Below, one piece after another: positions 24,475-56,248 of a stretch of DNA of 64,000 bases (position 1 is its first letter; the number at the start of each line of letters is the position of its first letter). The position numbers and the translations under genes are program-made. The notes under the pieces are model-generated. The model had not been told where the DNA came from, did no database searches, and worked only from the letters and a program-made list of their open reading frames with translations. The stretch comes from a bacterium (GTDB taxonomy: Bacteria > Bacteroidota > Ignavibacteria > Kapaibacteriales > UBA7675), in the NCBI GenBank assembly GCA_030430495.1, contig JAUIKM010000027.1, forward strand, positions 1-64,000, written 5' to 3'.

Positions 24475-24490
24475 GACAAACAAAAAAGTC
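24475..24490 (+). repeat. Dispersed motif copy 2 (GACAAACAAAAAAGTC)
   Basis: Full 16-nt copy in the intergenic region 180 nt upstream of the first SBBP gene. The 20-nt context differs at a single base from the copy at 30805. TGAC/GTCA form short inverted ends. Confidence 0.55.
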
Positions 24491-24669
24491 ATGAGGCATA
24501 GACGGCCGTGGCAGCGGACGGCTAAATGCCTTGTATTGCGGCAAGTCCCGCCGGGAGGCTGCGACCGAACCGCTCAAGTTGTGTCGCTTACCCTTATCGG
24601 TGTAGATTGCGCCGTTTCCTTCCTTCCGCACTACGCGGGGCCAGTATTAGACAACCTGATGAACTTCCG

Positions 24670-27600
24670 ATGCCTATGCGCCGCTTGATTCCGCTTATGC
24701 TGCTGTGTCTGTGCCTGCCGTTTCTTATCCACCAGGCCGCTTCCGCTTCTCCCCGCCAGTCCGATCAATACTCCACAGCCTCGTTCAACGCCAATGCCGG
24801 CCAGATTTACGACGATGCGGGCCATGTGCGTCCCGACGTGTTGTACCGCAGCCGCGGCTCCCAGTCGGAGATGTACCTGCGCCGCAGCGGTTTCAGTTAT
24901 GTTTTTACGAGTTATGAGCGCGATAATCACGACGACCGCTCGCCGATTGATCTGACGTATCTGACCGAGGAAAACGACGTGATGGTGACGCGCTACCGCA
25001 TGGACATGGAGTTCATTGGCGCTGACCCCATGGCGGTGGTGGACGGCGTCGGCATGTTGGCCGGTATTGAAAACTACTACCGCGGACCGGTGGAAAACGC
25101 CGTTCTGGGCGTGCATTCCTATCGCGAAGTGCTCTACCGCAACGTGTATCCGAACATCGACCTGCGCGTGTATTTTTCCGGGCAGGGGCTTAAATATGAT
25201 TTTCTTGTTTGGCCCGGCGGCAACCCCGCGGATATCAGGTTCAAATACGAGGGCGCGACGGACATCCGCCTGAAAGAGACGGGCGAGCTGGTCCTGCAGA
25301 ATCCGCACGGCACACTGGTGGAAGAGCGGCCCTACACCTGGCAGGGCAGCGGCACTGACGATCTGAGCGCCGAAACGGATGCAAAAAAGCGCAGCGTCGT
25401 GCGCTCCGCCTTCCGCCTGGTCGGCAAAGAAGTGTCGTTTGACATCGGCGATTACGACCGCAAAAAACTGCTGGTGATCGACCCAGGCGTGGTTTGGGGC
25501 ACTTACTACGGCGGCGTCGGCGCCGACTCCTTTGAGGATGTCTACGCCCACGATAACGGCAACGTTTTTGTGGCCGGCACAACCTCCTCCTTTGACTTTC
25601 CGACGACGCCCGGCATTGACAAACAGTCGAGTCTGGCCGGTTCGAGCGACGCCATGGTGGTCTTGTTCAACAAAGACCGCGACCGCGTCTGGGCGACCTA
25701 TTTCGGCGGCGCCAAGCTGGACCGCCTGGCTGGTATCTGGGTGAACGAAGTCGGCTCGGCGCACCTGATCGGCAGCACCACGAGCACCGATTTTCCGCTG
25801 AAACTCGCCTTCCAGGACGAACTCATCAACGATGAAAGCGCGGCGTTTGTCTCGCAGTTGAACGCCACGGAGGGCATCATCCGCTGGTCGACCTACTTCG
25901 GCGGCGGCAACCGCGACGAAGGCATCGATATCACCGGCAGCAACGGCCATCTGATTATTTGTGGCACGACCGGGGAGAAAGGAGCTCTTTTCCCGCTCAA
26001 AGGCGAATACAAAGGGAGCAAGGGCGACTTTGAGACCGACATGTTTCTGGCACGCATTCAGAACGGCGGCGCGCCGCTCTGGTCGACCTTTTTCGGCGGC
26101 AGCGACGACGACTACGCCACGGGCGTGACGATCGACAGCAAGAACAATATCACGCTGGTGGGCTGGACGCGCTCCGACGACATAAAAGACACGGACAACA
26201 ATTATCAGCCGGACAACGCCGGCGGTATCGACGGGGTCGTGGCCAAGTTCTCGCCGACGGGCAATCCGCTGTGGATCACGTATCTGGGTACGGCGGGCCG
26301 CGATCTGGCGATGGACGTGCAGGCGCTGCCGAACAACGACAATATTATGGTGTTCGGCGACACGCATCACACCAGCTTTCCGGTGTTCAACGGTTTCCAG
26401 AGCACGCCGAACAACGTGACCGATGACCCGGCCTTTGCGGACATGTTCCTGTTTGAGTTTACGCCCTCGGGGCGGCGAGCCTGGGCCAGCCTCTACGGCG
26501 GCGACAGCACCGACCGCGCCTTCAAACTTGCGGCCTATGACGACGGCGGCATCCTCCTTTGCGGTCAGACGAACAGCGACATATTCCCGCTCTCAGCCGA
26601 TGCCTGGCGCACCGACGCGTTGGATACCAATGGAGCGGCGGTCGTCGCCAAGATCAGCGCCGACCGCGACCTGATATACTCGACCTATCTCTTCGGCAAT
26701 AAACTCGACTTCGCCTACAGCGTGGCGGCCGTCGGCGCTACGGCGGAAGACGGCAACATGATTGTGGTCGGCGCTTATCAGACCGATACAATGCCGACAT
26801 TAAAGGAATTTCAGAACTTCGTCAAGGGCGGTACGGAAGGTTATATCTGGGAGTACGGTTGCGCCACGTTTACCGAGATTGAGGCCGACGGACCGCTGGA
26901 GTTCTGCGAGGGCGGCAGCGTCATTCTCGATGCGGGCGACGGTTTTGACGACTATACCTGGAACACGGGCGCAAAGACGCAGAGCATTGAGGTCACCGAG
27001 TCCGGCGACTACTTTGTGACGGTCATCGAGGGCGGCGACTGCGAGTTTACGACGCCGCCCACGGCGGTATCAGTCTTTCCGATTCCCGATCCGGTGATTT
27101 CAGCCGACGGGCCGACCGAGCTGTGCAACGGCGAGAGCGTGACGCTTGACGCCGGAGCAGGCTACGAAAGCTACAAGTGGTCGAACGATGCGGAGACGCA
27201 GACGATCACCGTGGACCAGACCGACGAGTACTTTGTCGTTGTGACGGGCGAGGGCGGCTGCGAGGCTGAGGCGAGCATCCAGGTCAATGTACGTCCCACG
27301 CCGCAATTGACGGCCGAGCCGGCCGAGCTGGACTGGGGCGTTCTCGACGGCTGCCAGTCAAGCGTAACACTGCCCCTGACTCTGACCAATACCAACGGTT
27401 TTCCGGTGCGGTTGACGGCGCTTGAATTCAGCAATGCCGATGAATTCGGCGCGACGAACTTTACGCCGGGCGTAGAGGTGGAATCCGGCGCAAACACCGT
27501 GATCAACATCGTGTTCACGCCGGCGACGCTGAACAATGTCGACGCCGAACTGCGCATCAAAATCTCGCCCTGCGACACTGAGATTGTCATTCCGCTCAAG

Positions 27601-29571
27601 GGCGGCAAAGGCGAGCTGTTACTGAGCGCCACGCCCTCAACGATGGATTTCGGCAATGCGCTGCTCTGCGGCGACAGCGCGGAAAAAGATTCGACCATTG
27701 TTTTCCGCAATTCCGGCGACGAAGATATCGTGCTGCAGTCGGCGCAGTTCAATGCGCCCTTCAGCGTGGTGGGCAATCCCTTTCCGCTGACGATTCCGCC
27801 GAACGAGAGTGCGGACCTGACAGTGCGTTTTGCCCCGGCGACGGCGGGCCCGGCCAACACCGAGTTGTCGGTGCGCTACACCAGTGGCAGTTGCGACGAC
27901 AACGTCCGCTTTGCGCTGAGCGGCGCCGGCCGCGACGCTGAAGTGACCTTGCTCAACGGCAATGAACTGCAGTTTCCGCGCGTGGGCGGCTGCGACGATT
28001 TCAGCGATGCCGAGCTTTTACTCGAAGTCAGCGCGGGAGCCGAAGGGCCGATCAGAATTGTGGGTGCGCAGGAGGCCGGCGGCCAGATTGCGACCCGCGA
28101 TGCGGCGCCCTTTGATCTCGCCGTGGCGGATGTCGTTCGTCTGCCGCTGCGATTTACGCCGGGCATGGAAGGCGTGATCAGCGGCACGGGGACGATTACC
28201 TATGAACTGGACGGCTGCACCAAAACGATTGATTTCAACTTTGAAGGTGAAAAGCGCGGAATAAGTATTGTCGTGCCGGACCAGCTTGATTTTGGAACCT
28301 ATTTCAGTTGTCAGGAAGAATCGCGCACCGAACGCGTGCAGATTCAGCACAGCGGCGAACCGGCCGTCGTGGAACGCATACAGATTGAAGGCGACTTTGC
28401 GACCACGCTGCTTGAAGGCGAGGATGTACCCGAATTCTTCGACATCATTTTTGCCACGAGCCAGACTGACGCCACGGGCAGCATGACGATTCGTTTCCAG
28501 CCCTGTGGCATCGAACGCACCATCCAGCTGACGGGACGCCGCGTCGACCTGAGTCTGGGCGGTCCCGCGGCCGAGGACTTCGGCACAGTACAGCCTGCGG
28601 CGTCGGACACGCGTACCATTACCTGGACCAACGACGGTACGGGGACGGTGGAAGTGACGGCCCTCGACTGTCTGCTGGAACCATTTTCGCTGGTTTCGCC
28701 GACGAACTTCCCGATTGAAGTCGCTCCGGGTGAAGACATTCAGATAGTGATTGCATTCAGTCCGACTGCGGCCGGCGACTTCACCGGCGAGCTCTGTGTG
28801 CGCATTCCGGATCCGTGCAACCTGACCTTCCGCACGGCGCTGAGCGGCACGGGCGACCAAGACGTCGTGCTGCCGGGCTCTGTTGACATTTACATTCCCG
28901 ACCTGACGGCCAATCCCAGGTGGTCCGCATTCGAGATACCGATTATCGTGCGATCGCTGGATGGATTCGGGGACAATCCGACCGTTTCGGCGACGGCCTA
29001 CGTGAGCATGAATGCAAGCGTCTTTTTCCCGCAGTCGCTGAGCGCCGGGGCAATTGCCGGCAACACGAAGAATCCGGGCGTGCGCCAACTGGTGTTGCAG
29101 ACCGGCGAGATCATGCTGGCGGCGGGCGAACCGATGACGGTAATCCGCGGCGTGCCGCTGTTGGGCGACGCGGTGACAAGCGAGCTGCTGCTTGACAGCG
29201 TGGTGTTCAGCGGCCGCGAGGTGGATGCGACGCTGCAGGACGGCAGCCTGACGCTGGACAGTCTGTGCGAAGCCGGCGGGACGCGCCTGCTGACGTCGGC
29301 GACCAGTTTCGGGATTCGCGGCATTCAGCCGAATCCGAGCGACGGCGCGGCGGACATCAGTTTCCAGCCGCTCGGAGGTGCGCTGAACGTGATAGAACTG
29401 TACTCGCCGACCGGTCAGGTGATCTTGCGCCGCGAACTTGACGTACCCGCCGGCGACGGCGGACGCGCGCGGCAGCTTCTGCTGCCGGACGATCTTCCCA
29501 CCGGCGTTTACACGCTGACCGTCCATGCCGAATTCCTGCGCGACAGCCGTCGCGTAGTCATTGTTCGATGA
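24670..29571 (+). CDS. Giant SBBP beta-propeller/HYDIN secreted protein, T9SS cargo (1)
   Basis: This protein has about 1633 residues. I start it at 24670, directly before the signal peptide (RRLIPLMLLCLCLPFLIHQA); the frame stays open upstream to 24526, but that part has no signal features. The N-terminal domain (about 35-265) matches the DUF7948 type found before SBBP repeats (FNANAGQIYDDAGHVRPDVLY, YPNIDLRVYF, LVIDPGVVWGTYYGG). SBBP propeller repeats follow (about 270-775), with the recurring W-x-T-Y-F/L-G-G pattern. Two Ig/PKD-like units have a CxGxSVxLDAGxGxxxYxW pattern. Next are about five HYDIN-like domains (890-1390), a cohesin-like segment and a T9SS type A domain (FGIRGIQPNPSDG, TGVYTLTVHAEF). 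The likely role is a surface or released adhesin or fibre; family functions are not established. Confidence 0.82.
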   Translation: MPMRRLIPLMLLCLCLPFLIHQAASASPRQSDQYSTASFNANAGQIYDDAGHVRPDVLYRSRGSQSEMYLRRSGFSYVFTSYERDNHDDRSPIDLTYLTEENDVMVTRYRMDMEFIGADPMAVVDGVGMLAGIENYYRGPVENAVLGVHSYREVLYRNVYPNIDLRVYFSGQGLKYDFLVWPGGNPADIRFKYEGATDIRLKETGELVLQNPHGTLVEERPYTWQGSGTDDLSAETDAKKRSVVRSAFRLVGKEVSFDIGDYDRKKLLVIDPGVVWGTYYGGVGADSFEDVYAHDNGNVFVAGTTSSFDFPTTPGIDKQSSLAGSSDAMVVLFNKDRDRVWATYFGGAKLDRLAGIWVNEVGSAHLIGSTTSTDFPLKLAFQDELINDESAAFVSQLNATEGIIRWSTYFGGGNRDEGIDITGSNGHLIICGTTGEKGALFPLKGEYKGSKGDFETDMFLARIQNGGAPLWSTFFGGSDDDYATGVTIDSKNNITLVGWTRSDDIKDTDNNYQPDNAGGIDGVVAKFSPTGNPLWITYLGTAGRDLAMDVQALPNNDNIMVFGDTHHTSFPVFNGFQSTPNNVTDDPAFADMFLFEFTPSGRRAWASLYGGDSTDRAFKLAAYDDGGILLCGQTNSDIFPLSADAWRTDALDTNGAAVVAKISADRDLIYSTYLFGNKLDFAYSVAAVGATAEDGNMIVVGAYQTDTMPTLKEFQNFVKGGTEGYIWEYGCATFTEIEADGPLEFCEGGSVILDAGDGFDDYTWNTGAKTQSIEVTESGDYFVTVIEGGDCEFTTPPTAVSVFPIPDPVISADGPTELCNGESVTLDAGAGYESYKWSNDAETQTITVDQTDEYFVVVTGEGGCEAEASIQVNVRPTPQLTAEPAELDWGVLDGCQSSVTLPLTLTNTNGFPVRLTALEFSNADEFGATNFTPGVEVESGANTVINIVFTPATLNNVDAELRIKISPCDTEIVIPLKGGKGELLLSATPSTMDFGNALLCGDSAEKDSTIVFRNSGDEDIVLQSAQFNAPFSVVGNPFPLTIPPNESADLTVRFAPATAGPANTELSVRYTSGSCDDNVRFALSGAGRDAEVTLLNGNELQFPRVGGCDDFSDAELLLEVSAGAEGPIRIVGAQEAGGQIATRDAAPFDLAVADVVRLPLRFTPGMEGVISGTGTITYELDGCTKTIDFNFEGEKRGISIVVPDQLDFGTYFSCQEESRTERVQIQHSGEPAVVERIQIEGDFATTLLEGEDVPEFFDIIFATSQTDATGSMTIRFQPCGIERTIQLTGRRVDLSLGGPAAEDFGTVQPAASDTRTITWTNDGTGTVEVTALDCLLEPFSLVSPTNFPIEVAPGEDIQIVIAFSPTAAGDFTGELCVRIPDPCNLTFRTALSGTGDQDVVLPGSVDIYIPDLTANPRWSAFEIPIIVRSLDGFGDNPTVSATAYVSMNASVFFPQSLSAGAIAGNTKNPGVRQLVLQTGEIMLAAGEPMTVIRGVPLLGDAVTSELLLDSVVFSGREVDATLQDGSLTLDSLCEAGGTRLLTSATSFGIRGIQPNPSDGAADISFQPLGGALNVIELYSPTGQVILRRELDVPAGDGGRARQLLLPDDLPTGVYTLTVHAEFLRDSRRVVIVR

Positions 29572-29985
29572 TTTGCCGGTTTCAGCGGCATTCGCATGCA
29601 TGGGGCGATCCTGAGCGCCTGTAATTTGTTGATAACAGATTGGGCGTCCGGGCTGGAAACGACGTTAAAATTGGGGAGCCAAAGGCTCTGAACGGGCGGT
29701 TTTGAACGATTTTTGAGCAGTGAGCCCTTAGAGCTCACAGCTCGTTTCAGCATGACTCCCAAACCGGCCTGAAATCCTGGTAATTCTGCGTCCGCAGTTC
29801 ACGCTGCGCCGCAAGGCTGATGCCGTGACTGCGGTCCGGCAAAAGTTCGTGTGGACATGATATTGGAAATCTGTCGGCGTTGTATCTTGGGCTCCGCCCG
29901 GATCGATCGAGTTGTCGAGCCGAAGGTTCGCCCGCGGTCTCCGGGCGGTAAAAACGCTACCTACTGCTGTCTCTACGGAGTAAAT
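29572..29985. other. Intergenic region between the two SBBP giants
   Basis: It holds the 31-nt hairpin repeat (29715-29745) and a small GGAGCC-AAA-GGCTC hairpin near 29675. GGAG lies just before the next start. I found no gene and no terminator with a T-tract for the upstream gene. Confidence 0.4.
29715..29745 (-). repeat. Intergenic 31-nt hairpin repeat, copy 1
   Basis: Read on the minus strand it begins ACGAGCTGTG, has a TCTAAGGGC core and ends CACTGCTC. It agrees at 26 of 31 positions with 56314-56344 read on the plus strand. It folds as GAGC/GCTC plus GTGAGC/GCTCAC with one mismatch and a 7-nt loop. Confidence 0.5.
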
Positions 29986-32900
29986 ATGCACGTCAAAAAT
30001 GCCGCAATCAGAATGCGACTGACCGCGCTGGCCTGTGCTGCCATTTTGCTGTTTGCCGCACCGAATTCAGATTCGTACGCCGGCCGGCCGACGGGGCTGC
30101 GCATGCAGGCCGACGGGCCGTGGTTTGAACCCAACTACGGTCAGGTGGTTGACTCCGACGGCATGACCAGGCCGGACGTGCTGTACACAAGCAAGGTGGG
30201 CGACGTGCGCATCTACGTCCGCAGCAGCGGGATCAGCTACGTGTTTGTGCGCGGCGTGGAGCCGCCCGTCGATCCCGATGCCGTGCCGGACGAGAATCAG
30301 GTCGACACGCTGGCGGTACCGCTGATCGAGAGCTACCGCGTCGACGTAGAGTTCGACGGGGCACAGCCGCAGCCGCAGCCGCGGACCGATGAGTTCCAAC
30401 CTTTCCGCCACACGAGCAACTACTATCTGGGGCACTGCCGCTACGGCGTCAAAAACGTGCCGCATTACGGCGGCGTGCTGCTGCGCGACATCTATGAAAA
30501 CATCGACCTGCGACTGCACTTTGTCGACGGCCGGTTCAAGTACGATTTTGTCGTGCGTCCGGGCGGCGATTGGCGCACTATCGCGATGCGGATTGTCGGC
30601 GTGGAGCGTCCGAAGATTACAGAAGACGGCAGTCTCTTTATGGACACGCCGCTGGGTTTTTACGTTGAGGAAGCGCCGGTTTCCTGGCTGGAAGCGGCGG
30701 ATGCCAACATCGACCTGCTGGCCTCGGATGTTCACAATCGCATTGAAGTAGCGAGCCGCTTTCAACTCGACGACCACCGTTTGACTTTTGACCTCGAACA
30801 CGCTGACAAACAAAAAAGTCTGGTCATAGATCCGGGAGTGGTCTTTTCAACCTACCTGGGCGGCAGTCTTTCGGATGCGGTCCAGGATGTCACAACAGAC
30901 GACGAGCGCAATATTTATGTGGTCGGCAGCACCGAGAGCAACAATTTGCCGGTGACGGCAGGCGTGATTCAGTCCAACAATGCGGGCACGTTTGATGCTT
31001 ATGTGGCGCGTTATACCGCTTCGGGCGAGCTGGAGTGGCTGACCTATTTCGGCGGCGGCGGACTGGACGAAGGCAAGGCGATCACGATCGACAAATCGAA
31101 CAATCTCGGTGTGGCGGGCACGACGTCGAGCGCCAATTTCCCCGCTACTCCGGGCGCTTATCAGGAGATTCGGCCGGGTCTCCGCGACGGATTTGTCGCC
31201 AAACTCTCCGAGCGCGGGCAGTTGCGCTGGGCCACCTACTTCGGCGGCAGCTTTTCGGACGGCATCAACGGCATCGCTGCGGACAGCTCGAACCACTTTT
31301 GTATTGTCGGCGAGACCAATGCGCGCGGGCAGGACTTTCCGCTCGTCAGCGAAGAATTCAACACCAAGGACAACAGTTTTATCGGCGGCTTTATTGCGCG
31401 GCTGAACAATGCCAGCGGCGATCCGCTCTGGTCGACGTACTACACGGCCAATGAAGTCGACCGCCTGGAAGATGTGGCCGTCGGTCGCAACGGCAATATT
31501 GTGGCGACGGGACAGACGCGCGCCCAGGTGGTGACGCGCGGCACAGGCGTGCTCTTTCCGACCTATCTGAGTTCCAACGACGCGACGATTTCCGTCTGGT
31601 CGCCCACGGGGCGGCTGGTGCGCGCCACGCACTTTGGTACGACCGACTACGAACTCGGCCTTGCCGTGGCGGTACAACCGGAGAGCGGCAATATTGTTGT
31701 GGCGGGAGAGACGGGGAGCACCAATTTTCCGTTGGAAAATCCGCTGCAGGATTTTGGCGGAAGTGAAAACAACTGGGGATTTGTGTCCTCCCTGGACGCC
31801 AATCTGCAACGCATCATTTTCTCCACATATATCAGCAGCAGCAGCACCGCCAGCGTCAGCGGCGTCGATGTCAACGCCCTGGACGGCAGCATTGCGCTGA
31901 CCGGGCCGTGCAATGGCTTCGACATGTTGGTGACCGACGACGCGGAGCAGGACAATCTTGACGACGGCACGGCCGACCGTTACGACGCCTGGCTCTGGCA
32001 GTTGTCCGCCGACGGGCAGGAACTCGTGTTCGGCACATATTACGGAGCGCCGCAGAGCGATATTGGCAACTCGGTGGTCTTTGACAAGGCCGGCAACATT
32101 GTGATGGTCGGCGAGTCCAACAGTACGACCATCGACATGTTCAACGCCGAGCAAATGACCAGCAATGGCGGCAATGAAGGATTTATTCGCAAATACGGCT
32201 GTGAAATCAGCACGGAAATAACACCTGACGGGCCGCTGGAGTTTTGCGACGGCGGCAGCGTTGAGCTCACCGCGGGCGACGGCTTTGAATCTTATGTCTG
32301 GAGCAACGGCAAAACCACGCAGTCGATCCTTGTCAACGGCACGGGCGATTACTCCGTGACGGTGCGCGACGCCGGCGGCTGCGAGTACACCACGCCGCCG
32401 ACGGCGGTCTCGGTGTTTCCCGTTCCGGATCCCGTGATCATTCCCGACGGTCCCACGGAGCTGTGCAACGGCGAGAGCGTCACGCTGGACGCGGGCGCGG
32501 GCTACGAGACATACAAGTGGTCCAACGATGCCGAGACGCAGACAATTACGGTGAACACCAGCGCTGAATACTTTGTGAAAGTGACCGGCGTGGGCGGCTG
32601 CGAAGCTGAAACGAGCATCGTGGTAAATGTGCGGCCGACGCCGACACTGACCCTGGATCCGGTCGAGCTGGACTGGGGCGTCCTGGACGGTTGCCAGTCG
32701 AGCGTATCGCTGCCGATCACGCTGACCAACAACAACTCCTTTCCCGTGCGGCTGTCCGATCTCGAATTCACGAACGATGTGGAATTTGCCGCGTCAAGTG
32801 TTCTGCCGAACCGGGCATTAGCTCCGGGCGAAGCCATTCGGCTTGACATTGTTTTTACGCCGGCAAGCACCAATCCTGTGAATGCCGAGATGCGCATCAA

Positions 32901-43347: not shown

Positions 43348-43798
43348 CGTACCCTGGTCGCTTGTATCGTGTCGTCTCATGTGTGTTCCGGCCTTGCCGC
43401 AGCGGGAACAGGACCAAGAACCGGGCATGCCGTGAACCGTTACAGCCCACTTCCGGCCCGCTCCATTTTACGCCGATTTCTGCCGGGATGCATTTTTTTC
43501 CGGTCGAAGCGTTAACGTTTTTTGCTTTCGGTGGTTTTCTGGATGGCGGCGCCGCTCAGGCTGCGTCGTTTTGGTCCCGATTGCGGCCATCGAGGGGGTA
43601 TCGGTGGCAACCGGATATTGGGCCATGACAGTCAGGTTCATTTGACACAGGTGTCCGACCCGTTCCAGGCTCAAAACCCGGGACGGGTCGGCTGCTTTAA
43701 AGCACTGCGGCGCGGCGTGGTTCGGTGCTGCTCCACTGTTACCGGCTACTTTTAAAAGGCCATTTTTGTTTGTCGTGCAGAGATCAGCTCACAGCCGG
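43348..43798. other. Intergenic region between metG and the sigma gene
   Basis: About 450 bp with no supported gene. It should hold the sigma operon promoter (minus strand). It also contains a variant of the dispersed motif (43759-43774) and the palindrome CTTTTAAAAG next to it. No convincing terminator for metG is visible. Confidence 0.4.
43759..43774 (-). repeat. Dispersed motif copy 4, variant (GACAAACAAAAATGGC)
   Basis: Read on the minus strand it shares the first 12 bases with the full copies, but its end differs (ATGGC in place of AAGTC). It lies 25 nt beyond the metG stop codon. Confidence 0.4.
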
Positions 43799-45964
43799 TC
43801 ACCGCACGACCATGCCGTCGGGAATGCCGGCGTCTGGTGAAATCAACACAATGCCGCCGCCGGGCGTGTCCGCGCAGAGGATCATGCCCTGTGATTCGAC
43901 GCCGCGCAGTTTGGCCGGTTTCAGGTTGGCCACCACGATGACTTTGCGGCCGACCAGTTCGTCAGGTTTGTAGTGCTGCGCAATCCCGGAAACGATCTGT
44001 CGCTGTTCAAAACCGAGATCCACCTGCATGCAGAGCAGTTTGTTGCTCTTTTTGATCTTTTCCGCCGAGGTCACCGTGCCGACGCGTAGCGCCGTCTGCT
44101 CAAACGCCGTGATATCGATTTCTTCCGGCAGCGCTTCGTACTCCACCTTTGCCGCGGCGGCCTGTGCGGCCTGGCTGCGCGCCACCAGTTTGTTGACCTG
44201 CGCCTCGATGACGGCGTCCTCAATTTTGCTGAACAGAATTTCGGGCGTCTCAATCGCGCTTCCCGAGGGCACGCCCGGCAGTCCGATCTGCTCCCAGTTC
44301 GCATCGTCAATTTTCTGTCCCAGGCAGCCGAACACACGACCGGAAGCGGCGGGGATCACCGGTGCAAATGCCACGGCCAGTCCACGCACGAGCTGGAGGC
44401 AGACATAGAGCGTGCAGCCGGTGGCTTCCATATCTGTTTTACTCGTTTTCCAGGGCTGCCGGTCGTTGAAGTACTTGTTGGCGGCTTCGGCCAGGCGCAT
44501 CGTTTCCGCCACGGCATCCTTAAAGCGGAAAGCGTCGTACTTGGCGGCCGCCAGGTCGCCGCCCTGCGCAAAAGCGCTGATGACGTCCAGCTCGTCGCGG
44601 CCGATGCCGTGACCTTCAAACTGATCATCCAGTTGTTTAAGCAGTTCTTCGGCTTCCGGCGCGTCGCCGGCGCGAACGACCCTGTTCAGGTGCGCCCAGG
44701 CGTCGTTAAACGCGTCCGGTACCGCGGGCACGACGCCGTCAAAGGTGCTCTGTAAAAATTTGATCGATCGATTAATAAAGTTGCCGAGCTTCGCGGCCAG
44801 TTCATTATTGACGCGCGCCTGAAAATCTTTCCAGGTGAAGTCGGCGTCCTTGGTTTCCGGAATACTCAGCGCCAGGGCGTAGCGCAGGGCGTCGACGTCA
44901 CGCTCATGCGGGAAATCCTGAAAATAATCGCGCAGGTCGATACCCCATTTGCGCGACTTGCTGAACTTCTGGCCTTCCAGGTTGAGGAATTCGTTGGCGG
45001 GTACGGCGGAGGGCAGGATGTAGTTGCCGCGCGCGTGCAGCATGGCCGGGAACATCAGTGTGTGGAACCAGATATTGTCCTTGCCGAGAAAGGCGAAGTA
45101 GGCGGTGTCTTTGTCCTGCCACCACTCTTTCCAGGCATCCGGTTTGCCCTGCGTCCGCGCCCATTCCTTGGTGGCGGTGATATAGCCCAGCAGCGCTTCA
45201 AACCAGACGTAGATGACCTTGCCCTCGGCTTCTTTGAGCGGCACGGGCACGCCCCAGCTCAAATCGCGCGTCACAGGGCGATTGCTCAGTCCGGCGTTCA
45301 GCCAGGAATACGACTGCTGGATGACATTGTCTTTCCAATCGTTTTTGTGCGAGCCGATGTAGTTCTCCAGGAACTCCTGGTATTCGCCGAAGCGGAAATA
45401 CCAGTGTTTTGTCTTGCGCAGCACCGGTGTTTCACGGCTCAGCAGGGAGACGGGATTGCGCAGTTCGAGTGGTTCGTACTTGGCCAGACAGTTGTCGCAT
45501 TCGTCGCTGCGGGCGCGCTCAAAGCCGCAGTTGGGGCAGGTTCCCTCCACGTAGCGGTCGGGCAGAAAGCGCTGAAACTTGTTGTCGAAGAACTGTTCTT
45601 CTTCCTGTTCAACGAGCAGCCCTTTTTTGAGGAAGTCAGTAAAAAACTCCTGCGCGGTTGCAACGTGCGCAGGGTTGGAGGTGCGCGAATAAATATCAAA
45701 ACTCATGCCGAAGCGCTCCAGCGCTTCCGCATTGGCGCTGTGGTAAGTGTCGGCGATCTCGCGCGGAGTGATGCCTTCTTTGTCCGCTTCAATGGCAATG
45801 GCCGCGCCGTTTTCATCTGAACCGCAGACGTAGAGCATCGGCATGCCGCGCAGGCGCATATGGCGCACGAAGAGGTCGGCCGGCAGGAAAGATCCGGCGG
45901 CATGGCCAAAGTGGATGTAGCCGTTGGCGTAGGGCAGGGCGGAAGTGACCAGGATGCGTTTCAT
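43799..45964 (-). CDS. metG: Methionyl-tRNA synthetase
   Basis: This 721-residue class I synthetase charges tRNA-Met. The catalytic domain opens immediately (MKRILVTSALPYANGYIHFG, with the HIGH motif as HFGH at 18-21). The zinc knuckle CPNCGFERARSDECDNC is at about 143-159. The KMSKS loop appears as KFSKS at 333-337. The anticodon-binding helical domain follows, and residues of about 615-721 form the C-terminal tRNA-binding/dimerisation domain (LRVGTVTSAEKIKKSNKLL, QIVSGIAQHY, KLRGVESQGMIL). The frame stays open for 108 codons upstream of the chosen ATG, but that part has no resemblance to synthetases and the HFGH segment fixes the start. No Shine-Dalgarno site is evident. It is an unlinked housekeeping gene. 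Confidence 0.97.
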   Translation of the reverse strand: MKRILVTSALPYANGYIHFGHAAGSFLPADLFVRHMRLRGMPMLYVCGSDENGAAIAIEADKEGITPREIADTYHSANAEALERFGMSFDIYSRTSNPAHVATAQEFFTDFLKKGLLVEQEEEQFFDNKFQRFLPDRYVEGTCPNCGFERARSDECDNCLAKYEPLELRNPVSLLSRETPVLRKTKHWYFRFGEYQEFLENYIGSHKNDWKDNVIQQSYSWLNAGLSNRPVTRDLSWGVPVPLKEAEGKVIYVWFEALLGYITATKEWARTQGKPDAWKEWWQDKDTAYFAFLGKDNIWFHTLMFPAMLHARGNYILPSAVPANEFLNLEGQKFSKSRKWGIDLRDYFQDFPHERDVDALRYALALSIPETKDADFTWKDFQARVNNELAAKLGNFINRSIKFLQSTFDGVVPAVPDAFNDAWAHLNRVVRAGDAPEAEELLKQLDDQFEGHGIGRDELDVISAFAQGGDLAAAKYDAFRFKDAVAETMRLAEAANKYFNDRQPWKTSKTDMEATGCTLYVCLQLVRGLAVAFAPVIPAASGRVFGCLGQKIDDANWEQIGLPGVPSGSAIETPEILFSKIEDAVIEAQVNKLVARSQAAQAAAAKVEYEALPEEIDITAFEQTALRVGTVTSAEKIKKSNKLLCMQVDLGFEQRQIVSGIAQHYKPDELVGRKVIVVANLKPAKLRGVESQGMILCADTPGGGIVLISPDAGIPDGMVVR

Positions 45965-46377
45965 GTTGTATTCTGCTGAAATCGGCGTTTTGCATTTAAA
46001 GAACGCGCAAACTACGGATTTTCGGCGAAGCGACCATCCGATTCGGCTCCGCGTTGCGGCCGCGGGCGACGCACGGGCTTTGCTCGTATTCCAATCGCTC
46101 CTCTCCGCATAACTAACAAGAGAATCAGGCAAGGGGCAGTTTGAAAATGGAGTAACAAAAGTAGTGGGATTTGCGATAATTGTGGGGCGAAGCCGAAATT
46201 CGACGGCGTCCGGGGAGCGTCGGAAGGGCGAAAAACTGACGGGAAAACGATCCTGATAATATTCTTCAGCTTGTGCCCGTAAGTTCAATTAAATGCGCAG
46301 GTTGACCTTTGGGCGGCTGTGGGCGGTCCGCGAAAATTACAAGTTCATGAAAAAAGTTTCATTCGAGTAATCCGGCG
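45965..46377. other. Divergent region between metG and the lytic transglycosylase
   Basis: The promoter of metG should lie here. The part next to metG has low G/C with T-rich blocks; further on it is mixed. No supported gene and no terminator were seen; a long metG-frame extension is read as non-coding. Confidence 0.4.
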
Positions 46378-48819: not shown

Positions 48820-48845
48820 TCGCGGCGACAAAACAACAGCAATCA

Positions 48846-49057: not shown

Positions 49058-50497
49058 ATGCAAACAGTGCAACCAATTTTCCGGGCTATTGTAGGGGCCG
49101 TCTGTTTTGTTGGAACCTGTCTGGGGCTACAGTCGCAGGAGTTTACGGCACGTCCGTTGGCGGGCGGGCTTGAGGTACCCTGGGAGATTTTGTACGGCCC
49201 GGATGCGCATATCTGGGTGACGGAGCGCCCCGGCAGAGTTGTGCGCATCGACCCGCAAAACGGCGAAGTCAAGCCGCTTGCCGCCATTGACGAGGTCACG
49301 TCCGTCGGCGAGTCGGGATTGCTCGGTATGCAGGTTTTGTCGGGTTTCTCGCAGGACCTGTCCGTTTTCCTGGCTTACACCTACGTGGAGAATGGATTTG
49401 AGTTAAAGCTGCGCATCGTGCGCTACACGTTTGCGCCCGGCGCAGATGGAGAAGAGGATCGGTTAATCGATCCGCTTGTTTTGCTCGAAGACATCCCTGG
49501 TGCGCAGATTCACGATGGCTGCCGCCTTTTGTTAAGTCAGGACAATCTGTATCTCTTTGCCACAACGGGCGATGCCGGCAGTTCAGCCATGGCGCAGAAT
49601 CTGGAGAGCCTGAACGGCAAAACGCTGCGCATGTATCTGGACGGCTCCGTGCCCGAAGACAATCCTTTCCCCAACTCCCTGATCTGGTCCTACGGCCATC
49701 GCAACGCGCAGGGGCTCGACTGGGGGCCCAACGGCGAACTCTACAGCTCCGAACACGGTCATACAACCGACGACGAGTTTAACATACTTACGCGCGGCGG
49801 CAATTTTGGCTGGCGCGACGTTCAGGGTTTCTGCGACGAACCGTTTGAGCAGAACTTCTGCGATCAGAACGACGTTGTAGAACCGCTGATGATCTGGACG
49901 CCGACGGTTGCGCCCTGCGGCATTACATACTACAACTCGGATCACCTTCCCGCACTTAAACATTCGGTTATCATGACGACGCTGAAGGAGCGCCGCCTGA
50001 TTGCGCTGCATCTTTCCGATGACGGCAAGCAGGTGGAGTCGACGACTGAACTGTTTGCGAATGAATACGGCCGTATCCGCGACGTTTGCGTCAGCCCGGA
50101 CGGCCGTCTGTTTTTTGCCACGTCCAATCGCGACGGCCGCGCGCAGGCCGGCGAAGCGCACGAAGACGACGACCGCATTATGGAAGTTGTGAACCCGACG
50201 AGTGCGGTCGATTCCAAGGAGCCCGACACTCGGGGCGCGCTGAGTCTGCATCCCAATCCGCTGGTGTCCGAGTGTTTTATCCATGCCGATACGCCGCAGC
50301 CCGGCATTTATACTCTGCAGATTCTCGACGTGCTGGGGCGCCCGCTGCGCACGGAAAAAATTGAGTCCCGGGGTGGTGAAATCAACTGGCGCTGGGACGG
50401 AAGAGACGATCGAGCAGTTAATCTGCCGAGGGGAACGTATTTGGTGGTCATTGGAGGCAATGGCGGCCGCCTGCAGTCAACTCTTGTTAAACACTGA
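49058..50497 (+). CDS. PQQ-type glucose/sorbosone dehydrogenase-like secreted protein (1)
   Basis: The 479 residues start at 49058, where AACGGAG precedes ATG. A signal peptide (ending GLQSQ) leads into a six-bladed propeller of the GSDH family: LEVPWEILYGPDAHIWVTER at the N-terminus, IHDGCRLLLSQD with the active-site-type His152, YGHRNAQGLDWGPNGELYS, and DEFNILTRGGNFGWRDV around residues 240-255. These correspond to the PQQ and calcium pocket of soluble aldose dehydrogenases. A short T9SS domain closes the chain (LHPNPLVSECF, WRWDGRDDRAV, RGTYLVVIGGNG). The likely reaction is PQQ-dependent oxidation of aldoses outside the cell. PQQ binding is inferred, and no electron acceptor is visible nearby. 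It is the shortest of three tandem paralogs and has no extra beta domain. Confidence 0.87.
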   Translation: MQTVQPIFRAIVGAVCFVGTCLGLQSQEFTARPLAGGLEVPWEILYGPDAHIWVTERPGRVVRIDPQNGEVKPLAAIDEVTSVGESGLLGMQVLSGFSQDLSVFLAYTYVENGFELKLRIVRYTFAPGADGEEDRLIDPLVLLEDIPGAQIHDGCRLLLSQDNLYLFATTGDAGSSAMAQNLESLNGKTLRMYLDGSVPEDNPFPNSLIWSYGHRNAQGLDWGPNGELYSSEHGHTTDDEFNILTRGGNFGWRDVQGFCDEPFEQNFCDQNDVVEPLMIWTPTVAPCGITYYNSDHLPALKHSVIMTTLKERRLIALHLSDDGKQVESTTELFANEYGRIRDVCVSPDGRLFFATSNRDGRAQAGEAHEDDDRIMEVVNPTSAVDSKEPDTRGALSLHPNPLVSECFIHADTPQPGIYTLQILDVLGRPLRTEKIESRGGEINWRWDGRDDRAVNLPRGTYLVVIGGNGGRLQSTLVKH

Positions 50498-50695
50498 GTT
50501 GCAGACTTGAAGTGAATAAGTGAATTCAGGAACGACGCGTTGTCCGGGCGTCTGTTTCCCAACCCTGCTGTATGATGTGCGCCATTCTGCCGGAGCAAAT
50601 GCTTGACTGACAAGTCAATGCGCTCAGGATTTACCTCCCGCACTGCTCCTGCACTTTCAACTTGTTTAATACTCCTTCTACACGCGGGGTATCTT

Positions 50696-53368
50696 ATGGT
50701 ATTGGTTCAAAACGGTCGGCGGCGACGGTTTGCGGCGCGCTGGTGTTCAGCGGCATTTCTCTTTTGGGCTTTCTTCACCCCAGGTCAGGCGCAGGAAGGC
50801 GTTGACCACATCACGCGCGATGTTGCATCCGACCTCAACCGGCCCTGGGAGGTCGTCTGGGGACCGGACGAATATTTGTGGTTTACCGAGCGACCGGGTC
50901 GCATCAGCCGCGTGCAGCCGGAGACGCGCGACCGCAGCGTTATTCTGGATATCAGCGACCGCGTCTCGCTGACGCACGAAGGCGGAATGATGGGGATGGC
51001 GCTCGACCCGGACTTTGACAACCGGCCCTTTGTCTACGTTGCGTATTCACAGTACTCCGAACTTAAACAACGCGACGCGCTGTACGTCACGCGTTGGCGC
51101 TACGATGCGGAGGCGAATGTACTGCGCGACGAGGAGGAATTGCTGCCGCCGTCAAGCACATGGAATATTCACCTGGGGTGCCGACTGTTGGTCGGCCCGC
51201 AGCGCACGCTGTTTATTTCCATCGGCGATACCGGTGATCAGACGCGCCCGTTGGATCCCGGCCAGATGCAGGGCAAGATACACCGCATCAATCTGGACGG
51301 CAGCATCCCGGCCGACAATCCGGATCCGGCCAGTTCGGTCTGGAGCATCGGCCACCGCAATCCGCAGGGCCTGGCGTTTGGGCGGGAAGGCCAGTTGTAC
51401 AGCAGTGAACACGGCACGGACGACGACGACGAGTTTAATATCATCGTGAAGGGCGGCAACTTCGGCTGGCCGCGTGTGATCGGTCCCTGCGACAATGTGC
51501 TGGAAGAAGCCTACTGCGACGAGTTTAATGTCGTTGAGCCGATTTACAGCTGGACGCCGACAATCGCTCCATCCGGCATCGAGTTTTACGACCACGATCT
51601 CTTCCCCGAGTGGCGCAACAGCGTCCTTATTTCCACGCTCAAAAATCAGCGCATCTATCGCATGGAAATGTCGCCCGACGGCAATCAGGTCGTCGCCGAA
51701 CACCAGTTGTTTAAAGGCATCTGGGGGCGTCTGCGCGACTTCGCGATTTCGCCGGAGGGCCGCCTGTTTATTTCTGCCACCAATCTGGAGCGCGACCTGC
51801 CGTTTCCCGATCGAGTATTTGAGGTTCTGCCCGTGTCGGCCTCCACGCTGGAACAGCCTGTCGACAAACTGACATTCGCCGGTGCTGAACTTGTCGAGAG
51901 CGCAACCAAACAGATCGTGCTGCGCAACCAGGGCGACGAGCCGCTGATAATCTATGACGTTTTCATCGACGGTCCCGACGCCGCGGCGTTTGTCGTCGGC
52001 GCGGCGGATCGCCGTTTAACACTCGATGGTAAACAAGAAAAGGCTGTTGCAGTGGAATACGCGCCTTTACAAGGCGTGGAGCACAATGCCGTGTTGCACT
52101 TTTCAAGCAATCAGGCCGGTGGGGCATCCTGGCAAGTGGAGTTGATCGGGAGGGTTAACGGTCCCGGCGTAGTGGTGAGACGCGCGTATCTGCACAGTGA
52201 TAATCTGATCGATGACAGTGACGTTGTTGTCCGCATCCCGCTGGAAGAGCGTCTCACCGGCGTGTTAAACACGGAGCTGGAAGAAAACCCTGTGTTTAAT
52301 CTGAAGGCGGCAAGTATTGCCGGCGCGAACATCTTGGTGCGGCTCGGCCGTTCTGACTCTGACGATCCGGTTCTGGCGGACCTCAGGATACAGGTTGACG
52401 GCCGCGACATTGAGAGTTTGCAGCTTGCGGCCAATGTGTCGCGACTATTGTGGACCGACGAAACTGGACGATTGCTTCGCGATGTGGACCAACTGATTCG
52501 GCTGAATGTTAAACGGGAGTTTAATCGGCTTTTGCCCGTGTTTCTGGTCAATCTGGAAAAAGCAGAACGCCGCGTTATATCGTATTATTTTGAAGCCGAG
52601 CAGGCGCCCGAGCTTGAACTACTACAGGGAACGCCGATCCTGCCGCCGCGTATCAATACGGAGCTCGACCTGGAACTGCGCGCCTTGCGTGCGGGCGGAG
52701 TGGATACACAATTGGGTCTTGTCACGGATGATGGACAATTGATTGAACGGGATGTACGAGTCAACGTTCTGGACTGGACGCCGACATCGGCCGACGAAGT
52801 GCATTTCACTTCCGCTGCTTTCCCCGCCCTTGTAGACACCGTTGTGTTTGTTCCAGGGTCTGTCGGCGGTCAGGCGGCTGAGGCGCACGCGCGCCTGGAA
52901 GGCAGTGAGTTTGTATCGATACAGTTTGTCGACGGTTCTCTGGCCGCCGGCGATACGCTGTGGATTGGACTGCGGGCAGAGCTGAGCGACAACGCATACA
53001 GAACGGCCGACCTGATTATTGAATACGAAAAAGCGCTGATGAGAACTGTCCGGCTGTTCGCCAACGAAAATCCAAGTTCGGTCGGGGAAGCTCCGGCGGA
53101 AATCAGTCTGCGCGTCCAGCCGAATCCCGTTCGCGATGTGTTAATACTGGCGGCGGAATTGCCGCGCGCGGGCGAGTGGAGTTTACGGGTCTTTGACCAG
53201 GCCGGTCGGCTGGTGATGCAACAGGCCGGCAGGTCTGCCGCGCCCGCCCTGCAGTTAAACGTCGATCTGCGGTCGGCGCTGTCGAAGATGCCCCCCGCCG
53301 GCATGTACGTAGCCGAACTGCGCAGCGGAGGGCGAACGCTTTCCACGTCATTTATCCTGCTTAATTAA
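50696..53368 (+). CDS. GSDH-like secreted protein with HYDIN-like insert (2)
   Basis: The 890 residues start at 50696 (GGGG upstream); a start at 50603 would add an unlikely N-terminus. A signal peptide ending TPGQAQ is followed by the GSDH propeller (about 25-385): LNRPWEVVWGPDEYLWFTER, IHLGCRLLVGP with His159, IGHRNPQGLAFGREGQLYS and DEFNIIVKGGNFGWPRV. A HYDIN-like domain follows (about 395-485, LTFAGAELVESATKQIVL to VELIGRVNG). Next is a region of about 300 residues of beta structure I do not recognise, with a LRADLSDNAY-type core. The C-terminus is a T9SS type A domain (RVQPNPVRDVLIL, VFDQAGRLVMQQ, AGMYVAELRSGG). It lies 198 bp after paralog 1 and 51 bp before paralog 3, so the last two are probably co-transcribed. 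Confidence 0.87.
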   Translation: MVLVQNGRRRRFAARWCSAAFLFWAFFTPGQAQEGVDHITRDVASDLNRPWEVVWGPDEYLWFTERPGRISRVQPETRDRSVILDISDRVSLTHEGGMMGMALDPDFDNRPFVYVAYSQYSELKQRDALYVTRWRYDAEANVLRDEEELLPPSSTWNIHLGCRLLVGPQRTLFISIGDTGDQTRPLDPGQMQGKIHRINLDGSIPADNPDPASSVWSIGHRNPQGLAFGREGQLYSSEHGTDDDDEFNIIVKGGNFGWPRVIGPCDNVLEEAYCDEFNVVEPIYSWTPTIAPSGIEFYDHDLFPEWRNSVLISTLKNQRIYRMEMSPDGNQVVAEHQLFKGIWGRLRDFAISPEGRLFISATNLERDLPFPDRVFEVLPVSASTLEQPVDKLTFAGAELVESATKQIVLRNQGDEPLIIYDVFIDGPDAAAFVVGAADRRLTLDGKQEKAVAVEYAPLQGVEHNAVLHFSSNQAGGASWQVELIGRVNGPGVVVRRAYLHSDNLIDDSDVVVRIPLEERLTGVLNTELEENPVFNLKAASIAGANILVRLGRSDSDDPVLADLRIQVDGRDIESLQLAANVSRLLWTDETGRLLRDVDQLIRLNVKREFNRLLPVFLVNLEKAERRVISYYFEAEQAPELELLQGTPILPPRINTELDLELRALRAGGVDTQLGLVTDDGQLIERDVRVNVLDWTPTSADEVHFTSAAFPALVDTVVFVPGSVGGQAAEAHARLEGSEFVSIQFVDGSLAAGDTLWIGLRAELSDNAYRTADLIIEYEKALMRTVRLFANENPSSVGEAPAEISLRVQPNPVRDVLILAAELPRAGEWSLRVFDQAGRLVMQQAGRSAAPALQLNVDLRSALSKMPPAGMYVAELRSGGRTLSTSFILLN

Positions 53369-53419
53369 GATTGAGCAACCGGAAAAACTTCAGACTATTC
53401 CTGACTTAACAATCGAGAT

Positions 53420-56095
53420 ATGATCATGTTATTGCGCTCATTCTGTCTCCTCGTCCTTGCCTTGTTTTACACAGCGATCACGTTAAACGCACAGACCGAC
53501 GAAACACAATACACGCATTGGGATCTGACGCCCGAGCTGGATCGTCCATGGGAAATCATCTGGGGGCCGGACGACTGGATCTGGTTTACGGAGCGTGTCG
53601 GCCGCGTGAGCGCCGTAAATCCGGAGAACGGCGAGATCAGGCAACTGCTGGATATTCGCGACCACGTGGCCGTGACACATGAAAGCGGCATGCTGGGTAT
53701 GGCGATTCATCCGGACTTTGAAAACGAACCTTATGTGTTTATCTCCTATTCGTTTCTGGACGAGAATGAGATCCCGTTTTTAACTGTCGGCAAGTTTCGC
53801 TACGACGCGGAGCTGGATCAGCTGGTGGATGAAGTGCGCATTGTGCCGCGCTCATCCATTGCGAATATTCACGCCGGCAGCCGTCTGCTGATCGGTCCCG
53901 ACAATTTGCTGTACATTACCATCGGTGACCGCGACGACATCGGCAAGCCGCAGGATCTGGATGAATTGCAGGGTAAAATTCTGCGCACAGATCTGGACGG
54001 CAACGTGCCCGAGGACAATCCTTTTCCCGGCAAGCGCGTGTGGTCGCTGGGTCACCGCAACCCGCAAGGATTGTGCTGGGGGCCGAATGGTCAGCTATAC
54101 AGCACGGAGCACGGCACGTTTAACGATGACGAGTTTAATATCATTGTTAAAGGCGGGAACTACGGCTGGCCGACGGTGCAGGGTTATTGCGACAATCCGA
54201 TTGAGGAAGCGTTCTGTGAGGCCAACGACGTCGTGGAGCCCATTACCGCCTGGACGCCGTCGATCGCTCCTTCCGGCACCTTGTATTACAATGGCGACGC
54301 GTTCCCCGAGTGGCAGCACTCCGTCTTTGTTTCCACACTGAAAAACGAAAGGATTTACCGCATGCACATGACGCCTGACGGCAACGCGGGTGAGTCCGAA
54401 GAACAGATGTTTAACGAGCGCTGGGGGCGCCTGCGCGATTTCGCCTTTTCTCCGGAGGGCCGCATTTTTGTGGCCACGACCAACTCCGAGCGCAACATTC
54501 CCAAGCCGGACCGCATTCTCGAGATTCTGCGCATTGTCGAAGGTGAAAATCTCCTTGCCGTTGAAAACGAGAAAAACCGCCTGCAAGCCGATATTGCGGC
54601 ATCGGATAAAACGCGGATCACGGTTAAAAACACAGGCGACGAAGCGGTCCGCATCTTTAACATTCGTCTGGAGAACAACACGCGCCGCGGTTTTTTCATG
54701 GCGGAACAGCCTCGTTCGATTGTCATTGAGCCGGATGAGCAGATCGAATTCGACGTGTACTTCGCGCCGCGTCTGGTGCAGGAATACGTCGCGACGTTTA
54801 TTTTCGATTCCAATACGGAGAACGGCGAACACCAGGTTACTCTGATCGGCACGGGTGAATCCATCCGGCCCTTTGACGATTTGTATGTAGCCAATTTTGG
54901 TTTTGTTGAAGAGCCGAAGGACAGCGTTTTTACCTTTGACATCGGTGCGGCCGATTTCAGCGACATAGAAAGTTGGTTCCTGACCGGGACGGATGAAATT
55001 GTGCTTGAGTCGGTCGAAATCGAGGGTCAGGATGATGACAGAACTCTGCGCCTCGGTCTGAAGTACTTAAACAGCGATCTCTCGGCTTCACATCTCGGTT
55101 TGTTGACAGTACAGAGCGACAGTGAAGAGGATCCGCTCAACGTCGTGGTGGCGGCGCGGCAGGCCGACGCCATCTGGCTGCAGGATGACTGGGTGCCTGT
55201 AAACACCTTGCAGCTGGGAGAGTTTTCCCAGTGCCGCCCTTTTGAATTCAGCGCCGACCTGTTAAACATTTCCGACCGCGATATTAAACCGGGGCGTCCG
55301 GCCTTTGATCTGGAGCACGGCAAAGAAGTGGAGATAATCGGCAACATTATCACGCCCGACCTGGTGTTGCCCTCGCTGGGGCGCGTGACGGTCGACTTCA
55401 AAATGGCCAGTATTGGTTTTGGCCCACAATCCGCGGAACTTGTCTGGCCTGAATCGACCCCGAATGCCGGCGCCGTCAGTAGTTTAACCGTTGCATTTGA
55501 AGGCCTGGAGGTTGAAGCGCAGCACGAGGACCCCGTCGTGTTTCCGGATACTTACGTCGACGAAGGCAGTGAGGTGGTTTACACCTACATCAACGAGATA
55601 CTCGATACGGCGCGGATTTCCAGCGTAACAATCGTCGGCGGCGATGCGGATCAGTTTAACCTTGTTCACTGGATTGGCGATAAAGTGCCGCAAGCTGAAT
55701 CCATGTGTGCGATACTGGCATTTAATCCGACGTCGGAAGGCCAGAAACTCGCGACGCTTCAGATTCATATCAAGGATGTTTTTGCACCTGTTGAGATTCA
55801 ACTGATTGGCAACGTCGTGAGTGATGTTAACATGGGTGTGCCGCATTCCGGTTGGAGTCTGGATGTGAGTCCAAATCCTGCACACTCCGAGTTCAGTGTT
55901 AACATGACGCTGGATCGTCCGCGCAGTTGGCAGCTGAGTTTAATCGATTTGCGCGGCAATGAGGCTGTTTTACGTCGCGGAGTCGGCGCGGAGGAACACA
56001 TCCGCATAACGGACCTGGAGCGTCCGGCGGGCGTATACATTCTGCGTCTGCGCTCGGGCGACGCGGTGTTTGACCGCAGCCTGATCGTTGAATGA
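53420..56095 (+). CDS. GSDH-like secreted protein with HYDIN-like insert (3)
   Basis: The 891-residue protein has a signal peptide (LLRSFCLLVLALFYTAITLNAQ) and a GSDH propeller (about 28-375): LDRPWEIIWGPDDWIWFTER, IHAGSRLLIGPDNL with His151, LGHRNPQGLCWGPNGQLYS and DEFNIIVKGGNYGWPTV. One clear HYDIN-like domain follows (about 385-475, IRLENNTRRGFFMAEQ to VTLIGTGES). Further beta domains that I cannot name come next (a second HYDIN-like pattern at about 700-795). The C-terminus is a T9SS type A domain (VSPNPAHSEFSVNM, LIDLRGNEAVL, AGVYILRLRSGDA). Two start codons, 53420 and 53426, are possible. Domain order and length closely match paralog 2, so one probably arose from the other; paralog 1 would be the minimal form. 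A strong terminator ends the array. Confidence 0.87.
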   Translation: MIMLLRSFCLLVLALFYTAITLNAQTDETQYTHWDLTPELDRPWEIIWGPDDWIWFTERVGRVSAVNPENGEIRQLLDIRDHVAVTHESGMLGMAIHPDFENEPYVFISYSFLDENEIPFLTVGKFRYDAELDQLVDEVRIVPRSSIANIHAGSRLLIGPDNLLYITIGDRDDIGKPQDLDELQGKILRTDLDGNVPEDNPFPGKRVWSLGHRNPQGLCWGPNGQLYSTEHGTFNDDEFNIIVKGGNYGWPTVQGYCDNPIEEAFCEANDVVEPITAWTPSIAPSGTLYYNGDAFPEWQHSVFVSTLKNERIYRMHMTPDGNAGESEEQMFNERWGRLRDFAFSPEGRIFVATTNSERNIPKPDRILEILRIVEGENLLAVENEKNRLQADIAASDKTRITVKNTGDEAVRIFNIRLENNTRRGFFMAEQPRSIVIEPDEQIEFDVYFAPRLVQEYVATFIFDSNTENGEHQVTLIGTGESIRPFDDLYVANFGFVEEPKDSVFTFDIGAADFSDIESWFLTGTDEIVLESVEIEGQDDDRTLRLGLKYLNSDLSASHLGLLTVQSDSEEDPLNVVVAARQADAIWLQDDWVPVNTLQLGEFSQCRPFEFSADLLNISDRDIKPGRPAFDLEHGKEVEIIGNIITPDLVLPSLGRVTVDFKMASIGFGPQSAELVWPESTPNAGAVSSLTVAFEGLEVEAQHEDPVVFPDTYVDEGSEVVYTYINEILDTARISSVTIVGGDADQFNLVHWIGDKVPQAESMCAILAFNPTSEGQKLATLQIHIKDVFAPVEIQLIGNVVSDVNMGVPHSGWSLDVSPNPAHSEFSVNMTLDRPRSWQLSLIDLRGNEAVLRRGVGAEEHIRITDLERPAGVYILRLRSGDAVFDRSLIVE

Positions 56096-56126
56096 CGCAC
56101 TGACAACTTGTTGACGCTTTTGTTTA

Positions 56127-56157
56127 ACACCCGTGCTTCCGGCGCGGGTGTTTTTTT
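56127..56157 (+). terminator. Rho-independent terminator of the GSDH array
   Basis: ACACCCGTGC pairs with GCGCGGGTGT (one G-U) around a short loop, followed by a run of T. It lies 32 nt past the stop. Confidence 0.93.
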
Positions 56158-56232
56158 GTTTTGGGCGGGGCGCTCACCGACGTGAATACTGATCGCTTTG
56201 AGGACTGCGCTGCGCTTGCCCTCAGGCTCTAT

Positions 56233-56248
56233 GACTTTTTTGTTTGTC
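56233..56248 (-). repeat. Dispersed motif copy 5 (GACAAACAAAAAAGTC)
   Basis: Full 16-nt copy on the minus strand in an intergenic region. It matches the copies at 24475 and 30805 at all 16 bases. Confidence 0.55.

What the first reader, a model, noticed from the sequence alone, without database searches (positions are those of the whole stretch)
24475..56248. A 16-base motif, GACAAACAAAAAAGTC, recurs across the window
Three perfect 16-base copies (24475-24490 plus, 30805-30820 plus, 56233-56248 minus) and three near copies (315-329, 43759-43774 minus, 59012-59026) occur in 64 kb. A random 16-mer is expected far below once. The copies lie both between and inside genes; one is inside the second SBBP gene where the paralog lacks it. 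The ends GAC/GTC form a short inverted repeat around an A-rich core. It could be a protein binding site, a nucleoid or segregation signal, a DNA uptake signal, or debris of a short mobile sequence. I know of no described motif with this sequence in this group.
Basis: seen in the sequence. Interest (0 to 1): 0.6.

Follow-up and report, generated by a model that had tools for sequence, protein, structure and literature searches.

The report
Genome-wide uptake-sequence-like DNA motif
The 16-base word is the core of a roughly 45-base DNA signal that occurs about 1,300 times, evenly spread, in this one bacterial genome and in no relative examined; it behaves most like the "self" tags that some bacteria use to recognise their own DNA during uptake, which I could not find described in this group.

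Summary
The motif is real and far above chance. The whole genome has 104 copies at up to one mismatch against 2 for the reversed control. The relatives examined (including both held members of its family) and 396 phylum genomes show no enrichment. The 16-mer is only the core of a ~45-bp directional motif, roughly CNNNNNN-CTTCNAAC-YCG-NT-GACAAACAARA. A weight matrix gives 383 sites in 1.63 Mb (about 1,300 per genome). The GAC/GTC "inverted repeat" is not its essence. About 68% of sites are intergenic and 32% lie in genes, on both strands, in several frames; the SBBP copy aligns without gaps to its paralog. Single-mismatch variants fall at tolerant positions only. Sites are spaced more evenly than occupancy-matched random sites (0 of 500). 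Close pairs are mostly inverted, A-runs outward. A subset carries conserved modules to about +60; near-identical copies of these within 15 kb share orientation (25:1), like mobile elements. No REP-type transposase, reverse transcriptase or PilB/PilT-type ATPase was found; ComEC and DprA are present. Best reading: a DNA-uptake-sequence-like genome signature (0.4); rivals are REPIN-like repeats (0.27) and an architectural binding site (0.2). Terminator and RNA-hairpin readings were tested and are weak.

The parts
24454..24490 (+). Motif copy (exact 16-mer at 24475), intergenic, 95 nt after one ORF and 35 nt before the ATG of the SBBP ORF at 24526
   Evidence: 35.1 bits; exact match
30784..30820 (+). 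Motif copy (exact 16-mer at 30805) inside the second SBBP gene, coding ...FDLEHADKQKS
   Evidence: 33.6 bits; paralog aligns without gaps; at the end of the DUF7948 match, aa 92-328
56233..56269 (-). Motif copy (exact 16-mer at 56248-56233), intergenic
   Evidence: 29.1 bits
56187..56237 (-). Class A downstream module AGAGCCTGAG...CTCAAAGCGATCAG attached to the 56248 copy
294..330 (+). Near copy at 315 (one A shorter), 30.4 bits; lies at the edge of a low-scoring predicted ORF, so probably intergenic
331..366 (+). Class B'-like module AAAGCGAGCC...GGCGCTGCAAT downstream of the 315 copy
   Evidence: sequence, compared with the class defined
43759..43795 (-). Near copy (class C, GGCCTTTTAAAAG downstream), just after the stop of the methionyl-tRNA ligase gene metG (43799-46288 -)
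   Evidence: 28.1 bits; metG
58991..59027 (+). Near copy (class C), intergenic, upstream of the fliP homologue (59223-60050 +)
   Evidence: 34.7 bits; FliP
59028..59058 (+). Imperfect inverted repeat GGCCAGGCGCAGCCTGAAGCCGCTCAG downstream of the 59012 copy
3927..3963 (+).
   Evidence: 30.3 bits; 3-mismatch match
52007..52043 (+). Further copy inside the gene 50696-53368 (GGTAAACAAGAAAAGG)
   Evidence: 28.0 bits
60649..60685 (-). Weak copy in coding DNA (GACAAGCAAAAACATC)
   Evidence: 20.3 bits

Best explanation
The motif is a genome-wide, lineage-specific DNA recognition signal of the DNA-uptake-sequence kind. A protein recognises the ~45-bp directional sequence centred on TGACAAACAARA. Shown: abundance, both strands, coding as well as intergenic sites, gapless coding copies in the cases that could be aligned clearly, position-specific tolerance of mismatches, even spacing, and absence from relatives. 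Inferred: that recognition happens during uptake of DNA, so that fragments carrying a copy enter more often and recombine back, and biased uptake gradually spreads the sequence by point substitution wherever protein sequence allows. Inverted intergenic pairs and the attached modules would be secondary accretions, some of them copied locally.
For: Density and specificity: 104 against 2, and 576 against 14 for a wider pattern, in the own genome; at most 11 in any of 79 relatives, whose controls are similar. 383 sites at 14 bits or more in 1.63 Mb against 11 in a Markov control. Equal strands. Coding DNA away from gene starts: 40 sites at 20 bits or more against 0 for the mirrored or complemented matrix, in several frames on both strands. 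Substitution rather than insertion: the SBBP copy aligns gaplessly with its paralog; a copy inside a T9SS sorting domain covers 68 residues on 68 profile positions. Copies in T-orientation fall in signal peptides (28 within 130 nt of a gene start against 3 in the other orientation), and copies in A-orientation in hydrophilic DKQK stretches, that is, in permissive frames. Mismatches to the 11-mer core concentrate at positions 1, 3 and 8 (43, 75, 26) and spare 4 and 7 (7, 4), unlike neutral decay. Even spacing: CV 0.703 against 0.891 +- 0.051, and 10% against 20% of gaps below 1.5 kb, 0 of 500 simulations each. Motif-free stretches are lower in GC and tend to less native codon use. Published uptake sequences share even spacing, no orientation bias, 35% (Neisseria) in ORFs, more copies than expected in non-coding DNA, about 10% inverted repeats and origin by point mutation (PMC1939737). 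comEC and dprA are present, and Riemerella (Bacteroidota) is competent without pilus homologues (PMC8459023).
Against: No PilQ and no PilB/PilT-type ATPase in the 95.6% complete genome; ComEC and DprA are widespread and prove nothing. The motif is longer than known uptake sequences. A subset carries conserved modules to about +60 and is copied locally as a unit, which uptake drive does not predict. In the YceG gene the copy sits beside a 7-residue insertion, and other coding cases are not clearly gapless. No relative shares the motif, so no dialect series can be seen. Nothing shows competence in this organism.
Confidence: 0.4

Rival explanations
1. A REPIN/BIME-like family of small non-autonomous mobile repeats. 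The full unit is an inverted pair (module-TTTTGTTTGTC ... GACAAACAAAA-module, about 140-190 bp), moved by an unidentified enzyme acting on one DNA strand at the replication fork; single copies are half-units or remnants.
For: Within 400 bp, 47 pairs have A-runs outward, against 11, 8 and 2 for the other arrangements. Near-identical 60-190 bp copies end sharply near +57 to +62 with unrelated flanks. Near-identical copies within 15 kb are in the same orientation 25:1, against 272:280 for all elements, which is what strand-bound, fork-local copying would give. Intergenic and convergent regions are enriched.
Against: No Y1 (RAYT/IS200) transposase and no reverse transcriptase. About a third of sites are in genes, and the clearest ones have no indel. 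Sites are spaced more evenly than random, while REPINs are reported as randomly spread in extragenic space (PMC3116915). Most sites lack the modules. The modules are not unusually stable hairpins. No clear target duplication was seen.
Confidence: 0.27
2. A binding site for a chromosome-organising, replication or repair protein that needs sites every few kilobases. The C residues at -28, -20, -13, -6 and +2, spaced 7-8 bp, suggest an extended multi-contact site.
For: Even spacing with avoidance below 1.5 kb; long information-rich directional site; inverted pairs; position-specific tolerance.
Against: No strand bias, so a directional replication signal is unlikely. About 1,300 sites is far more than known segregation or occlusion sites (own knowledge). 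Depletion from low-GC, atypical stretches fits uptake drive equally well. No candidate protein was identified.
Confidence: 0.2
3. Intrinsic transcription terminators whose U-tract is the motif read as TTTTGTTTGTC, paired between convergent genes.
For: Convergent intergenic regions are enriched (84 sites; 64-92% of those over 300 bp occupied). Read as T, the sequence often has an inverted repeat followed by a T-rich run.
Against: In tandem regions there is no orientation preference (63 against 70). Downstream folding is no stronger than shuffles (mean z -0.23 for the module classes). Covariation is minimal. Sites also lie inside genes and signal peptides.
Confidence: 0.05

Closest known systems
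DNA uptake sequences of Neisseriaceae and Pasteurellaceae (DUS/USS)
   Same: Over a thousand copies, both strands, coding and intergenic, intergenic excess, frames and places that proteins tolerate, gapless coding copies, even spacing, some inverted pairs, restricted to a lineage
   Different: Longer (~45 bp), attached modules to about +60 with local copying, a Bacteroidota-type genome, no type IV pilus genes found, uptake preference untested
REPINs / REP-BIME repeats with RAYT (TnpA_REP)
   Same: Short imperfect inverted repeats, inverted doublets 27-150 bp apart, intergenic excess, unit-sized near-identical copies
   Different: No RAYT found, a long linear core rather than a palindrome, a third of sites in genes, even rather than random spacing, modules not thermodynamically unusual
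Correia elements and other MITEs
   Same: Inverted-repeat-bounded units of 100-200 bp in some copies
   Different: Most copies are single motifs without a module; no target duplication seen; coding copies without indel

Membership tests
DNA uptake sequence | Strong genomic over-representation, lineage-specific | tested here: met
DNA uptake sequence | No strand bias; present in coding and non-coding DNA | tested here: met
DNA uptake sequence | Arises by substitution in existing sequence rather than insertion | tested here: inconclusive
   Gapless in SBBP and a T9SS sorting domain; a 7-residue insertion adjoins the YceG copy; several other alignments have gaps
DNA uptake sequence | More even spacing than random | tested here: met
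DNA uptake sequence | Preferential uptake of DNA carrying it | not testable with these tools
   needs a laboratory assay
DNA uptake sequence | Type IV pilus type uptake machine (in the known cases) | tested here: not met
   No PilQ or PilB/PilT-type ATPase found; Riemerella transforms without pilus homologues
REPIN / REP | RAYT (Y1) transposase in the genome | tested here: not met
   genome 95.6% complete
REPIN / REP | Extragenic location | tested here: not met
   260 intergenic against 123 in predicted genes; about 40 strong sites deep in genes
REPIN / REP | Inverted doublets over-represented | tested here: met
REPIN / REP | Doublets randomly distributed | tested here: not met
   Spacing more even than the null
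Intrinsic terminator | Stable hairpin followed by U-run, oriented after genes | tested here: not met

The most novel reading that the evidence does not exclude
The first DNA uptake signature in the phylum Bacteroidota: a ~45-bp, ~1,300-copy self-recognition tag read by a pilus-independent uptake machine, with inverted, locally copied versions in intergenic DNA.
Probability: 0.3. Interest if true: 0.8.

Novelty: new variant of a known kind. Interest (0 to 1): 0.6.

Why it matters
Sequence-tagged DNA uptake is known from two proteobacterial families. A genome signature of this type in a Bacteroidota-type genome without type IV pilus genes would mean that self-tagging arose independently, and would give a handle on the unknown uptake machine proposed for Riemerella. 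If it is instead a mobile repeat, it is one with about 1,300 sites, no recognisable transposase, even spacing and same-orientation local copying, which is also unexplained.

Tried and rejected
Rfam families: none at gathering score in the window, only chance-level matches at 20 loci. RNA-structure reading of the modules: few compensatory changes and ordinary folding energy, so the fixed-distance "hairpins" are reported only as imperfect inverted repeats. RAYT/IS200 and reverse transcriptase, i.e. retron, DGR or group II intron: not found. Dialect in the two family members: over-represented words in G002 are tandem repeats inside genes, G001 shows nothing. Phage origin: viral contigs carry single matches only. 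Genome-contig hits look like isolated matches, not a repeat family. Sigma-70 promoter reading: set aside by inspection, since no -10 element is conserved and neighbouring genes are not preferentially downstream. The over-represented word TTGTTTAAG looked like a sister motif but is mostly antisense codon context and lacks flanking conservation.

Full report
Observation. In the 5.6-Mb genome that contains the window (contig C41), the 16-mer occurs 104 times at up to one mismatch against 2 for the same word read backwards, evenly on both strands. The 60 nearest relatives, including the two held members of its family, have 0 or 1 each. Of 396 phylum genomes only this one is enriched. A wider pattern gives 576 against 14 here and background everywhere else among 80 genomes.

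What the unit is. From 1.63 Mb of the genome, alignment of 104 core matches shows conservation from about -28 to +20, with C at -20, -13 and -6 (weaker at -28), CTTC at -13 to -10, CG at -4/-3 and the core TGACAAACAARA. A weight matrix over -21 to +10 finds 383 sites at 14 bits or more, against 11 in a third-order Markov control, that is about 1,300 per genome by extrapolation. The matrix was trained on this sequence, so the whole-genome pattern counts are the independent support. The terminal GTC is typical of only some copies.

Where it sits. About 260 sites are intergenic and 123 in predicted genes (genes were called with a simple dicodon model). Convergent intergenic regions are the most occupied and short divergent ones the least. 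In coding DNA, after dropping the first 150 nt of each gene, 40 sites score 20 bits or more while the mirrored and complemented matrices give none. Frames differ: DKQK in one orientation, LLFV or FCLS in the other. In the T-orientation 28 copies lie within 130 nt of a gene start, mostly in hydrophobic leader sequence. The SBBP copy of the window aligns without a gap to its paralog, FDLEHADKQKSLVIDP against FDIGDYDRKKLLVIDP. A T9SS sorting-domain copy covers 68 residues on 68 profile positions. In YceG the first half of the motif overlies conserved SDS residues, but a 7-residue insertion relative to the 24 orthologues aligned follows it. So substitution is clear in two cases and not general proof.

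Constraint. One-mismatch versions of the core are concentrated at positions 1, 3 and 8 and nearly absent at 4 and 7. Neutral decay of dead repeats would not do this. Even spacing survives a null that keeps the occupancy of each class and length of intergenic region. Motif-free stretches tend to lower GC and less native codon use.

Mobile features. Three families of conserved sequence follow the core at fixed distances (+18 or +20/21), almost always next to a core match (88 of 95). Inverted pairs with A-runs outward dominate. Near-identical 60-190 bp copies have sharp ends at about +57 to +62 and unrelated flanks. Within 15 kb they are nearly always in the same orientation (25:1), although elements in general are not (272:280); the pairs are not all independent, since some loci contribute several. 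This is what local copying along one strand at a fork would give, but no transposase of that type and no reverse transcriptase was found. The modules do not fold better than shuffles and show little covariation.

Interpretation. The distribution matches the published description of uptake sequences: even spacing, no orientation bias, about a third in ORFs in Neisseria, an excess in non-coding DNA, and origin by point mutation (PMC1939737). It departs from REPINs, which are extragenic, randomly spread and tied to RAYT (PMC3116915). ComEC and DprA are present; PilQ and PilB/PilT-type ATPases were not found, which weakens the classical machine but not necessarily uptake in Bacteroidota (PMC8459023). 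I therefore put a DUS-like signal first at 0.4, with REPIN-like repeats and an architectural site as serious rivals.

Noticed in passing
whole genome sample (L056-L135): The words TTGTTTAAG and TTGTTTAAC are strongly over-represented, mostly antisense in genes (CTTAAACAA); probably a codon-context bias. The word TGTTTAAG is also enriched in G002.
   Followed up: partly
L099-L102 (contig C58, 78623-124829): A single predicted gene of about 46 kb (15,402 aa) with repeated units; several units carry the motif.
   Followed up: no
L122 (contig C80, about 122557-139969): A 17-kb stretch without the motif, GC 0.489 and low codon score: probable genomic island.
   Followed up: no
window 59223-60050: A flagellar FliP homologue in a genome with T9SS sorting domains; flagella are unusual in Bacteroidota.
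   Followed up: no
L096-L097 (C58 18757 and 28018): A 171-bp unit, 94% identical in two places 9 kb apart, same orientation, unrelated flanks.
   Followed up: partly
L298 (yceG): A 7-residue insertion relative to 24 aligned orthologues lies directly beside a motif copy.
   Followed up: partly
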